36,024 nucleotides of DNA from Bacillota bacterium (lineage in GTDB: Bacteria; Bacillota; Clostridia; Peptostreptococcales; Anaerovoracaceae). The first letter of the stretch is position 1. The number at the start of each line of letters is the position of its first letter. The notes under the pieces were generated by a model that was not told the DNA's origin, ran no database searches, and was given only the letters and a program-made list of their open reading frames with translations. The stretch is from the NCBI GenBank assembly GCA_017433375.1, contig JAFRHG010000032.1, positions 1 through 36,024 on the forward strand, in the 5' to 3' direction. Of this stretch, positions 11,116-35,467 are shown one piece after another. The translations under genes were made by a program, and so were the position numbers.

Positions 11116-11474
11116 TGGTGGAGATGATGGGAATCGAACCCATGTCCGAAAGCATTTCCGCAGGAGTTTCTCCGAGCGCAGCTTCTGTTTTGAAGATTCG
11201 CCGCCGGAAACGCCCAGAAGCAGGCTGTTCCTTTGACTATCCCGTTAGTCCCTTACGCGGCCGGGATCACGCGCAAGGTTTTCCTGCATGTTTGACGTCA
11301 GGACCCCAACCTGCAGGTGAATCGAGGCTGACGCGCGGTGCTGACTTACGCAGCAAATGCGAGTTTGTTGTTAGTTTTTGCGTTTATCTTTAACGTGTCC
11401 TTTTTAACGCAGACTGGACAAACTGCGGCTCGCTTATCCTGTTTCTACACCCCCGTCGAAACCAGTGCATCCCC
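11116..11474 (-). ncRNA. ssrA: Transfer-messenger RNA (tmRNA)
   Basis: The minus strand begins GGGGATG at 11474 and ends with a tRNA-like T arm (GGTTCGATTCCC), CATCTCC and an encoded ACCA at 11116. The 5' and 3' seven-base ends pair as an acceptor stem with one G-U wobble. The length of 359 nt is normal. The 5' segment GGTTTCGACGGGG is the conserved tmRNA start. The tag reading frame lies at 11346-11381. tmRNA with SmpB releases stalled ribosomes and tags the nascent peptide for proteolysis. The smpB gene is encoded just upstream on the same strand, separated by one small gene. Confidence 0.96.
11346..11381 (-). other. tmRNA proteolysis-tag reading frame
   Basis: Starting from the resume codon GCA at 11381 the message reads Ala-Lys-Thr-Asn-Asn-Lys-Leu-Ala-Phe-Ala-Ala and stops at TAA (11346-11348). 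The hydrophobic LAFAA end fits recognition by ClpXP/ClpAP-type proteases. Confidence 0.9.
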
Positions 11475-32321: not shown

Positions 32322-32358
32322 ACCTGGCTGGGATGTAAGCTTCCTGGCCAGGTTTTTT
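32322..32358 (+). terminator. Plus-strand terminator at the edge of the truncated fragment
   Basis: A 12-bp stem with two G-U pairs (32322-32333 with 32342-32353) is followed by TTTTTT. No plus-strand gene precedes it in the window, so it is probably the tail of a lost gene brought in or cut off by rearrangement. Confidence 0.65.
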
Positions 32359-32813: not shown

Positions 32814-33009
32814 CGCAGTGGGGATGCCCGGAGGTGCCTGCGGCTGGCTTCCGCAGTCCCGGCAACAGTTGTGCGAAGGAGGAACGTAAGGAGCCGTGGC
32901 GGATTCGTCGGGTGGTTCCGACGAATCCCGCAGGCGAACACGTTTCACCGAGCGTACAACTGTCCGGGATGAGGACTTAAGCCTCCGGCACCTCCGGGCA
33001 TCCCCTGCG
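32814..33009. ncRNA. Highly structured 196-nt element, candidate non-coding RNA or mobile hairpin element
   Basis: By hand the sequence folds into a compact four-way junction. P1 pairs 32820-32838 with 32987-33005 (19 uninterrupted Watson-Crick pairs), extended by 32814-32817 with 33006-33009. P2 is 32839-32843 with 32851-32855. P3 is 32857-32862 with 32964-32969 and 32865-32872 with 32956-32963, extended by 32873-32875. P4, inside P3, is 32881-32887 with 32940-32946, then 32893-32895 with 32933-32935 and a hairpin 32899-32911 with 32918-32931. P5 is 32971-32974 with 32982-32985. Almost no bases are unpaired at the junction. I recognise no known RNA family, and the strand is undetermined. No gene overlaps it credibly. 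Confidence 0.55.
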
Positions 33010-33085: not shown

Positions 33086-35467
33086 TTACAGAATCATGCT
33101 CCCGATCATGTGGGTCAGGACCGCCATGATCCAGGCGATCACGCACTGCCAGACGACGACGCCCAGGGCCCAGCCCCAGCCCAGTTCCCGCTTGGTGGAG
33201 GCGATGGCCGCCACGCAGGGGGTGTAGAGCAGGGAGAAGACCAGAAGGCAGATGGCCGTCAGGGCGGTCATAGCCCCGGCCACGTTGCCGGCGAAGAGGA
33301 TGCCCAGGGTGGAGACCACCGTCTCCTTGGCCAGGAATCCGCCGATGAGGGCGGTGCAGATCCGCCAGTCCCCCAGGCCCGCCGGCGCCATGACCGGCGT
33401 CAGCCAGCCGGCGATGATGGCCAGCATGCTGTCCTGGGAATCGGTGACCATGTTCATGTGCGGATCGAAGCTCTGGAGGAACCAGATCACGATGGTGGCC
33501 AGCAGAATGATGGTGAAGGCTCTCTGGAGAAAGTCCTTCGCCTTGTCCCACATGAGGCGCAGCACATTGCCCGCGCCGGGCATCCGGTAATCCGGCAGTT
33601 CCATGACGAAGGGCACCGGCTCACCGTGGAAAATCTTTTTGTACACGAAGGCCGCCAGTATCGCCAGCACGATGCCCAGGACGTAGAGGCCAATCATGAT
33701 CAGGGCGCCGTGTCCGGGGAAGAAAGCGCTGGTGAAAAAGGCGTAGATGGGGACCTTGGCCGAACAGCTCATGAAAGGCGTCAGCAGGATGGTCATCTTC
33801 CGGTCCCGCTCACTGGGCAGGGTCCGGGTGGCCATGACCGCCGGCACCGTACAGCCGAAGCCGATGAGCATGGGCACGATGCTCCGGCCGGAGAGGCCGA
33901 TCTTCCGCAGGAGTTTATCCATGAAAAAGGCAACCCTGGCGATGTAGCCGCTGTCTTCCAGGATCGACAGGAAGAAAAACAGGGTCACGATGATGGGCAG
34001 GAAGCTGAGCACTACGCCAACACCCTCGAATATTCCTTTGATGATGAGGCTGTGAATGGCCGCGTTCACCTCGGCCGAAGTCAGGATGTGATCCACGATC
34101 TGGGTCAGGATGCACACACCCCTTTCCACCAGTCCCTGGAGGAAGGCGCCGATCACGTTGAAGGTCAGCCAGAATACCAGGCCCATGATGCCGAAGAACA
34201 CGGGAATGGCTGTATACTTGCCGGTAAGGATCCGGTCTATCTTTTCGCTTCGGATCTTCGTTACCCGCTCCTTCGGGTGATGGACCGTGGTGATGCAGAC
34301 CCGGTGAATGAAGGAGAAGCGCATATCCGCGATGGCCGCGCTCCGGTCCAGTCCCCTCTCCTTCTCCATCTGCAGGATGATGTGCTCCACCATCTCCGCC
34401 TCGTTGGGTTCCAGATGCAGCTGTTCGGCGACCATCGGGTCGCCTTCGATCAGTTTGGATGCCGCGAACCGGACGGGGATCCCCGCCTCCTCCGCGTGGT
34501 CCTCAATGAGATGTATGATGCCGTGAAGGCACCGGTGAACGGCCCCGCCGTCTTCCGTAGGTGCGCAGAAATCCTGTCGGAGGGGTTTTTCCTGGTATTT
34601 CGCCACATGGATGGCGTGGTCCACCAGCTCCCGGACGCCCTGGTTCTTCGCCGCCGAAATGGCGATGACGGGAACGCCCAGCTGGGCTTCCATGGCGTTG
34701 ATGTCGATGCTGCCTCCCCCTGCAGCCACCTCGTCCATCATGTTCAGCGCCACCACCATGGGCACATCCATCTCCAGCAGCTGCATGGTCAGATAGAGGT
34801 TCCGCTCGATATTGGTGGCGTCCACGATGTTGATGATGCCCCGGGGCTTTTCATTCAGCACGAAACTGCGGGAGACGATCTCCTCGCTGCTGTAGGGAGA
34901 CATGGAATAGATGCCCGGCAGATCGGTGACGATGGTTTCCGGATGGCCCTTGATGACGCCGTCCTTGCGGTCCACCGTAACGCCTGGGAAGTTGCCCACA
35001 TGCTGATTGGCGCCGGTCAGCTGATTGAACAGGGTCGTTTTGCCGCAGTTCTGGTTGCCCACCAGGGCGAAGGAAATGACCGTGCCCTCGGGCAGGGGAT
35101 CTCCGCTTCCCTTGGGATGGAACCGTCCCCCCTCACCCAGGCCGGGGTGCTCCGGCGACGGATCCGACGCGGGACGGCCGGCGGCATTGCCCGCACCGGC
35201 AGATGCGGCGGCGACCTCCTGGTGTTTGCGCCGGCCGGAGGTTTCCCGGTCCACCTGGATCTTCTCCGCGTCCGCCAGGCGCAGGGTCAGCCGGTATCCC
35301 TGGACCGACAGTTCCACCGGATCGCCCATGGGGGCATACTTAACTACGGCAACCTCTTCTCCCGGGATGACTCCCATATCGAGAAAATGCTGCCGCAGGC
35401 TTCCTTCGCCGCCCACGGAGATGATTCGTCCCCGCTCGCCGGGTTTGAGCTCTCGCAGTGTGGTCAT
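33086..35467 (-). CDS. feoB: Ferrous iron transporter, FeoA-FeoB fusion
   Basis: This 793-aa protein imports Fe(II). Residues 1-73 are a FeoA SH3-like domain (LRELKPGERGRIISVGG). A 55-residue linker rich in Ala, Gly and Pro (about 74-128) follows. Then comes FeoB: G1 GNQNCGKTT (137-145), G3 DLPGIYS, G4 NMMD, and a membrane part with the gate motifs GFGCTVPAVMATRTL and FMSCSAKVPIYAFF. Many FeoA and FeoB proteins are separate; the fusion should hold the regulatory FeoA next to the G domain. GGAGG lies just before the ATG with short spacing. It follows clpB by 27 bases and may be co-transcribed with it. No Fur box is visible. Confidence 0.95.
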   Translation of the reverse strand: MTTLRELKPGERGRIISVGGEGSLRQHFLDMGVIPGEEVAVVKYAPMGDPVELSVQGYRLTLRLADAEKIQVDRETSGRRKHQEVAAASAGAGNAAGRPASDPSPEHPGLGEGGRFHPKGSGDPLPEGTVISFALVGNQNCGKTTLFNQLTGANQHVGNFPGVTVDRKDGVIKGHPETIVTDLPGIYSMSPYSSEEIVSRSFVLNEKPRGIINIVDATNIERNLYLTMQLLEMDVPMVVALNMMDEVAAGGGSIDINAMEAQLGVPVIAISAAKNQGVRELVDHAIHVAKYQEKPLRQDFCAPTEDGGAVHRCLHGIIHLIEDHAEEAGIPVRFAASKLIEGDPMVAEQLHLEPNEAEMVEHIILQMEKERGLDRSAAIADMRFSFIHRVCITTVHHPKERVTKIRSEKIDRILTGKYTAIPVFFGIMGLVFWLTFNVIGAFLQGLVERGVCILTQIVDHILTSAEVNAAIHSLIIKGIFEGVGVVLSFLPIIVTLFFFLSILEDSGYIARVAFFMDKLLRKIGLSGRSIVPMLIGFGCTVPAVMATRTLPSERDRKMTILLTPFMSCSAKVPIYAFFTSAFFPGHGALIMIGLYVLGIVLAILAAFVYKKIFHGEPVPFVMELPDYRMPGAGNVLRLMWDKAKDFLQRAFTIILLATIVIWFLQSFDPHMNMVTDSQDSMLAIIAGWLTPVMAPAGLGDWRICTALIGGFLAKETVVSTLGILFAGNVAGAMTALTAICLLVFSLLYTPCVAAIASTKRELGWGWALGVVVWQCVIAWIMAVLTHMIGSMIL

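What the first reader, a model, noticed from the sequence alone, without database searches (positions are those of the whole stretch)
32814..33009. Unrecognised 196-nt four-way-junction structure between feoB and a small ORF
Six stems nest without conflict: a 19-bp perfect closing stem (32820-32838 with 32987-33005), a local hairpin, a 14-17-bp stem with an inner arm ending in an 11-13-bp hairpin, and a small hairpin, with practically no free bases at the junction. It matches no riboswitch, 6S, SRP, RNase P or group II motif that I can recall. GC content is high against AT-rich DNA to its left. It could be a new structured RNA or a hairpin-type miniature mobile element.
Basis: seen in the sequence. 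Interest (0 to 1): 0.75.

Follow-up and report, generated by a model that had tools for sequence, protein, structure and literature searches.

The report
Dispersed giant hairpins at gene ends
The 196-base hairpin beside feoB belongs to a so far unnamed family of very long hairpins scattered between genes of Clostridia, each with a shared, structurally conserved middle and its own private matching arms, often sitting where a transcription stop signal would be expected.

Summary
The hairpin is real (z = -11.4), matches no Rfam family, and is one of a dispersed family. A covariance model finds relatives in 32 of 49 genomes of the genus and in 10 of 92 genera sampled from the family; a second model finds some outside it and 7 in the own genome. 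The family folds as an unbranched rod, not a four-way junction. A core of roughly 130-170 nt has conserved purine-rich internal loops (TCCGCAGGAGC / GCGACGAGGAC) and covarying stems (589 double-change cells against 161 in shuffles). Beyond the core most copies have private arms that pair with each other but not with those of other copies; two loci of one genome can share a 96% identical core with unrelated arms. Copies favour 3' ends of genes (54 convergent, 45 tandem, 9 divergent gaps). A canonical terminator remains outside the hairpin in 6 of 31 convergent gaps, against 20 of 33 without hairpin. Best reading: a REP/MITE-like extragenic palindrome whose core spreads or is converted between loci and which acts as a bidirectional 3'-end element. 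RNA or DNA as acting form, the enzyme, and termination itself are not shown.

The parts
32814..33009 (+). whole long hairpin, type 1 member of the family
   Evidence: model R1 match 32834-32992, 140.9 bits; model R2 match 32834-32991, 43.3 bits
32814..32838 (+). 5' outer arm, largely private
   Evidence: pairs with 32987-33009; BLAST matches in relatives start at 32830 or later
32850..32976 (+). core shared with the family, from TCCGCAG to GAGGAC
   Evidence: alignment A1
32850..32859 (+). 5' side of the most conserved internal loop (family form TCCGCAGGAGC)
32890..32899 (+). 5' side of inner loop motif GGAGCCGTGG
32900..32930 (+). apical stem-loop
32931..32939 (+). 3' side of inner loop motif CAGGCGAAC
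32966..32976 (+). 3' side of the most conserved internal loop (family form GCGACGAGGAC)
32987..33009 (+). 3' outer arm, private
   Evidence: no BLAST match in relatives reaches beyond 32982
33086..35467 (-). FeoA-FeoB fusion gene whose stop codon faces the hairpin
   Evidence: Pfam FeoA, FeoB_N, FeoB_C

Best explanation
It is one copy of a dispersed family of giant extragenic palindromes. Shown by computation: a core with conserved mismatched loops and covarying stems; private complementary arms at most sites; a preference for 3' ends of genes and for gaps between convergent genes; syntenic copies in several species; cores far more alike than their arms between loci. Inferred: the core is what spreads or is copied between loci (by insertion or by gene conversion), while the arms are at least partly local DNA kept complementary; the hairpin works as a bidirectional 3'-end element, in which RNA from either gene runs into the palindrome and folds into a rod that ends or pauses transcription and shields the 3' end from exonucleases, taking over the job of the ordinary terminator; a structure-specific protein reads the tandem G.A loops of one strand. 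No protein partner, transcript end or movement was observed.
For: Family and covariation. Private arms: 101 of 118 copies pair better than all 297 cross-copy controls; between copies whose cores are 84% identical at the median, arm identity is 0.56 and 0.54 against 0.51 at random; sharp junctions at TTTCCGC and GAGGACC in L111/L186; at one site syntenic in five species each copy's arms pair (scores 20-23), but 15 of 20 pairings with another species' arm score 6-11. Gene ends: 54 convergent, 45 tandem, 9 divergent among 108 copies with both neighbours. Terminator replacement: at the L185 site G020, G007 and G003 have a simple bidirectional terminator, and G033, G010 and G006 the hairpin in its place (by eye); a like pattern behind feoB; canonical terminator outside the hairpin in 6 of 31 single-hairpin convergent gaps against 20 of 33 controls, p = 0.001. 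Mismatch loops stay unpaired while stems covary. Spread: nearest non-orthologous core lies in the same genome for 48 of 121 copies against 10.8 expected; 7 near-identical copies in G408.
Against: No U-rich tract at the outer ends of the arms, so it is not a canonical intrinsic terminator. At the L098 site the hairpin pair of G010 lies beside a kept terminator, not in its place. The window copy itself is not between convergent genes: feoB faces it, the ORF to the left points away. The terminator comparison counts orthologous sites separately, uses a home-made ORF and terminator finder, and its controls include relatives' feoB and L098-type sites. In the genus no terminal repeat shared by many copies was found (best flank 7-mers in 8-11 of 102 copies), and only one enzyme family was searched for. 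Core similarity between loci could be gene conversion alone. At one syntenic site (L182) the arms of one species pair no better than with its orthologue (14 against 15).
Confidence: 0.5

Rival explanations
1. A purely selfish miniature mobile element: the structure serves only its own spreading (for example as a folded single strand recognised by an enzyme made elsewhere), and the gene-end location reflects where insertion is tolerated.
For: Dispersal in one genome and across genera; 7 near-identical copies in G408 inside longer inverted repeats; cores 96% identical at different loci of one genome; close pairs always in one relative orientation, 15 of 15, 12 independent sites, one of the 15 resting on a weak match; few copies in divergent gaps.
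Against: Syntenic copies stay paired in five species although their arms have diverged; an ordinary terminator is rarer where the hairpin sits; no shared terminal repeats seen in the genus; Y1 transposase, the one enzyme searched for, is missing from hairpin-rich genomes.
Confidence: 0.27
2. A structured RNA family transcribed from the + strand, acting in cis or trans through the G.A loops.
For: Double changes in 50 of 53 pairs; G.T above A.C in the type 2 core, 48 against 20; purine mismatches on + in the core.
Against: Sense to both neighbours in 17 of 45 tandem sites, antisense in 28; G.T only 2.4-2.7% of standard core pairs, no bias in the type 1 core, 9 against 7, none in the arms; in the window the nearest promoter-like match on + ends 200 nt upstream.
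Confidence: 0.18
3. A structure-specific recombination site on single-stranded DNA, working like an integron attC site.
For: Strand asymmetry of the loops with variable stems; location at 3' ends of genes.
Against: Ten sets of copies keep both flanking regions across species (sets as listed); no integrase and no attC boxes were looked for.
Confidence: 0.05

Closest known systems
REP / BIME / REPIN extragenic palindromes (PMC2817692, PMC3116915, PMC8266576; starts of abstracts seen in a search listing)
   Same: Dispersed, extragenic, palindromic, at gene ends, some in oppositely oriented pairs.
   Different: Several times longer (REP length recalled); conserved mismatched loops; private arms; no co-occurrence with a Y1 transposase in this genus.
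Miniature inverted-repeat transposable elements (general knowledge)
   Same: Short, non-coding, several copies per genome; near-identical copies in G408.
   Different: No terminal repeats shared between copies seen in the genus; arms mostly unrelated between copies.
Bidirectional intrinsic terminators between convergent genes
   Same: Same position; some relatives have one where others have the hairpin.
   Different: No U-tract, several times longer, with conserved internal loops.
Palindromic candidate structured RNAs of human microbiomes (PMC8040213; passages read)
   Same: That paper counts 250 palindromic candidates, 230 with a predicted intrinsic terminator and 20 without.
   Different: Its tables were not open to me, so whether a member of this family is among them is not known.

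Membership tests
Any Rfam 15 family | score at or above the gathering threshold | tested here: not met
   window, and 12 loci with relatives: only a tmRNA and a tRNA elsewhere; relaxed search of 601 bases gave two matches far below threshold
Structured RNA | stems kept by compensatory change | tested here: met
   589 double-change cells against 161 +/- 11, 0 of 500 shuffles; slid versions at most 102; the same is expected of a folded DNA strand
Structured RNA | one transcribed strand: G.U tolerated, sense orientation or own promoter | tested here: inconclusive
   type 2 core 48 vs 20, type 1 core 9 vs 7, arms 158 vs 137; 17 sense, 28 antisense
Intrinsic terminator | stem followed by U-rich tract | tested here: not met
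   T mostly 21-39% around the arm ends, no run; no terminator-like site at the hairpin in the window
Intrinsic terminator | lies at 3' ends of genes | tested here: met
   54 convergent, 45 tandem, 9 divergent of 108
REP/BIME/REPIN | extragenic palindromes in oppositely oriented pairs | tested here: met
   15 of 15 close pairs in one arrangement; but 91 of the 121 copies used are not in such pairs
REP/BIME/REPIN | companion RAYT-type Y1 transposase | tested here: not met
   PF01797 in 14 of 49 genomes, none in G015, G006, G008, G009, G016
MITE | terminal inverted repeats shared by copies | tested here: not met
   genus: best flank 7-mers in 8-11 of 102 copies, arm identity near random; G408, in another family, differs
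MITE | target site duplication | tested here: inconclusive
   filled and empty sites compared at two loci by eye, no clean duplication
attC site | R' and R'' boxes and an integron integrase | not tested
   considered only by analogy

The most novel reading that the evidence does not exclude
A new kind of genetic element: a small folded core that moves or is converted between loci without its arms, acquires or keeps locus-made arms that can fill the whole gap from stop codon to stop codon, and thereby replaces the ordinary bidirectional terminator, read by an unknown protein that recognises tandem G.A steps on one strand.
Probability: 0.3. Interest if true: 0.82.

Novelty: new variant of a known kind. 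Interest (0 to 1): 0.62.

Why it matters
If right, little-studied Clostridia carry an unnamed class of giant palindromes that stand in for terminators between convergent genes. It poses testable questions: how long palindromes are tolerated, how arms stay complementary while their sequence turns over, and which protein reads the G.A loops. The covariance models give a direct way to annotate it.

Tried and rejected
Phage and plasmid records: no match. Viral contigs: 3 pattern matches, none of which folds like the family by my reading. Genome contigs pattern: 28 loci, of which I judged 4 real by their folds (L018, L023, L034, L040); their contig lengths and positions equal those of genus genomes already found (G042, G016, G038, G030); 24 were dropped as chance. 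Y1 transposase as the driver: rejected for lack of co-occurrence. REP-like octamers beside the window copy looked suggestive, but 42 of 121 copies have one near and 42 in control stretches. Insertion into the loop of a resident terminator as the origin of the arms: considered; arms carry no U-tract and at L098 the terminator is kept outside, so not adopted. G.T against A.C on the arms: an early excess vanished after removing core bases and copies sharing arms. An orientation bias relative to genes seemed present, but convergent sites give it for free; only tandem sites inform, 28 against 17, p = 0.14. Literature: six answered searches (listings of 8 to 20 rows each, out of 14 to 1,404 papers) showed no title or abstract describing this family; the motif letters occur in 101 papers, of which the 10 listed are unrelated by title. 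PMC12306157: term search only, no mention of Clostridia, Firmicutes or convergent.

Limits of the sample: the 121 copies used were picked by me, and their types set by me from length and score; weak or partial hits were left out (L195, a second L184 hit, L154, L166, L156, L144, window 21304), one weak hit (L087, 15.8 bits) was kept. Fetched loci favoured strong hits and pairs. 118 of 121 entered; 91 of 104; 102 the 7-mer count; 45 of the 53 listed entered alignment A6. Orthologous copies are counted separately except where said. ORFs were called by length only. Searches over more than 40 genomes use stricter filters, and the models miss some copies (for example a 3' half at L221). Searches of family and class are samples.

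Full report
The observation. The stretch 32814-33009 folds at -132.9 kcal/mol on the + strand and -123.9 on the - strand, with z-scores of -11.4 and -10.2 and none of 200 shuffles as good. The perfect 19-bp closing stem is there. GC is 0.64 against 0.35-0.39 to the left. Rfam has no match. Its local 5' hairpin can form at least three of four pairs in 35 of 45 relatives, the competing rod pairs all form in 44.

A family. BLASTN found matches in 10 of 49 genomes of the genus, own included, and only the own genome among 197 drawn from the family. A covariance model from 11 copies (R1) matched 32 of 49 genus genomes (19 matches in G015), and 22 of 247 genomes in 10 of 92 genera of the family sample, own genus included. 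A second model from 45 type 2 copies (R2) matched 10 of 391 genomes and 7 of 223 genera of the class sample. Eight of the ten lie outside the family; five of these (family f11: G291, G408, G517, G553, G585) keep the TCCGCAGGAGC/GCGACGAGGAC loop or a near form, whereas the G630, G515 and G509 loci shown share mainly a long rod or the apical motif, so their kinship is less sure. The own genome has 7 R2 matches, E of 5e-8 or better.

Anatomy. I divide the genus copies into type 1 (R1 match about 158 nt; the window copy) and type 2 (about 172 nt, with an apical TTTGAGC...GCGAGTTT). Both are rods interrupted by purine-rich loops in which GA faces GA on the + strand; the outermost, TCCGCAGGAGC against GCGACGAGGA, is nearly invariant in 45 copies. 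Reading these as sheared tandem G.A pairs is my inference. In A6 93.4% of cells pair, 50 of 53 pairs show changes on both sides, and 589 cells carry a double change against 161 +/- 11 in shuffles and at most 102 when slid. The tool warns that related sequences can beat the shuffles without structure; the slid controls guard against that only in part. For type 1 the alignment of 11 gave double changes in 27 of 38 pairs.

Private arms. Outside the core each copy has arms, median aligned length 37 nt in 91 copies, that pair with each other: 101 of 118 copies score above all 297 pairings of one copy's 5' flank with another's 3' flank; 17 do not. Arms of different copies are mostly unrelated. The extreme case is G010, whose copies L111 and L186 share a 96% identical core with an abrupt change to different, internally paired arms at TTTCCGC and GAGGACC. 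Other pairs share arms over roughly 9, 20 or, with mismatches, 50 nt (L204/L176, L206/L073, L091/L092). The nearest non-orthologous core lies in the same genome in 48 of 121 cases, against 10.8 with shuffled labels. So cores spread or are converted within genomes, and arms are at least partly local.

Syntenic copies. At one site held by five species (A2) each copy's arms pair with scores of 20-23, while 15 of 20 pairings with another species' arm score 6-11 and the other five 14-22. At another (A3) G010 and G033 agree, but G036 has a different core and different arms, so that site may have been filled or converted twice. A4 and A5 compare close copies; in A4 the G033 arms pair weakly (14).

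DNA or RNA. In the arms G.T and A.C mismatches are about equal (158 and 137, p = 0.24), which gives no sign of a favoured strand. In the type 2 core G.T exceeds A.C (48 against 20, p = 0.0009), in the type 1 core not (9 against 7); G.T makes only 2.4-2.7% of standard core pairs. Repair of imperfect palindromes could keep arms matched without selection, but would be expected to remove the conserved mismatches of the core, so I infer selection on the core.

Place in the genome. Of 108 copies with an ORF on both sides, 54 lie between convergent ORFs, 45 between tandem and 9 between divergent ones (54 against 9: p = 6e-9). Tandem copies show no significant orientation (28 antisense, 17 sense, p = 0.14). 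Close pairs occur at 15 loci (12 independent sites) and all 15 have the same arrangement, 5' ends facing; one of them rests on a weak match. In 16 of 34 single convergent sites both arms come within 25 nt of, or run past, both stop codons.

Filled and empty sites. At the L098 site G010, G006 and G033 carry a hairpin pair between two convergent genes; G005 and G020 have the same two genes with no hairpin, and in G010 a simple terminator like that of G005 is kept next to the hairpin. At the L185 site G020, G007 and G003 have a plain bidirectional terminator, while in G033, G010 and G006 it is gone and the hairpin fills the gap; G036 has the terminator plus other inserted repeats and G035 another long hairpin (by eye). 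Behind feoB, R1 finds a hairpin in 4 of 30 loci: G000 (type 1), G008 and G027 (type 2, antisense to feoB) and G032 (type 2, sense); G025, G014, G001 and G004 show a simple hairpin terminator by eye, others have another gene directly behind. Counted over sites, a canonical terminator is found outside the hairpin in 6 of 31 single-hairpin convergent gaps and in 1 of 5 two-hairpin gaps, against 20 of 33 hairpin-free convergent gaps (6/31 against 20/33: p = 0.001). Orthologous sites are counted separately there, and the controls include relatives' feoB and L098-type sites.

Mechanism. I conclude, with moderate confidence, that these are extragenic palindromes in the REP/MITE mould, with a core that spreads or is converted, and that they come to serve as bidirectional 3'-end elements. 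They are not canonical intrinsic terminators, since there is no U-tract. The spreading enzyme is unknown; a Y1 transposase is absent from several hairpin-rich genomes, and no other enzyme family was searched for. In G408, of another family, 7 copies are nearly identical in the core and sit inside inverted repeats of a CATTGCGAG type (one copy is cut by a contig end); that this motif is a common REP-like repeat is recalled, not looked up.

Novelty. Six answered searches of the open-access library, seen as listings, showed nothing that describes the family. PMC8040213 (passages) reports 250 palindromic candidate RNAs in human microbiomes, and PMC2267715 (passages) 92 families of stem-loop repeats; I did not see their sequences, so an unnamed earlier sighting is possible.

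Noticed in passing
window 11116-11474 (-): A complete tmRNA gene, 183.7 bits.
   Followed up: no
L337 (G036:C2:135150-135900): A gap filled with many short TTGTACAAG-type palindromes next to an ordinary terminator, a different repeat at a site where relatives have the giant hairpin.
   Followed up: no
L255, L266, L271 (G630): Hairpins with very long, almost perfect stems and a shared apical motif in a genome of another family; possibly a distant branch.
   Followed up: partly
L283-L289 (G408): Seven near-identical hairpin copies lying inside longer inverted repeats of CATTGCGAG type, a good place to look for a mobile unit with defined ends.
   Followed up: partly
L336 (G035:C39:9850-10320): A long hairpin with other loop sequences at the same gap as the L185 hairpin, perhaps a further subfamily.
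   Followed up: no
window 32322-32353 (+): An ordinary terminator-like hairpin with T-tract, well upstream of the element.
   Followed up: no
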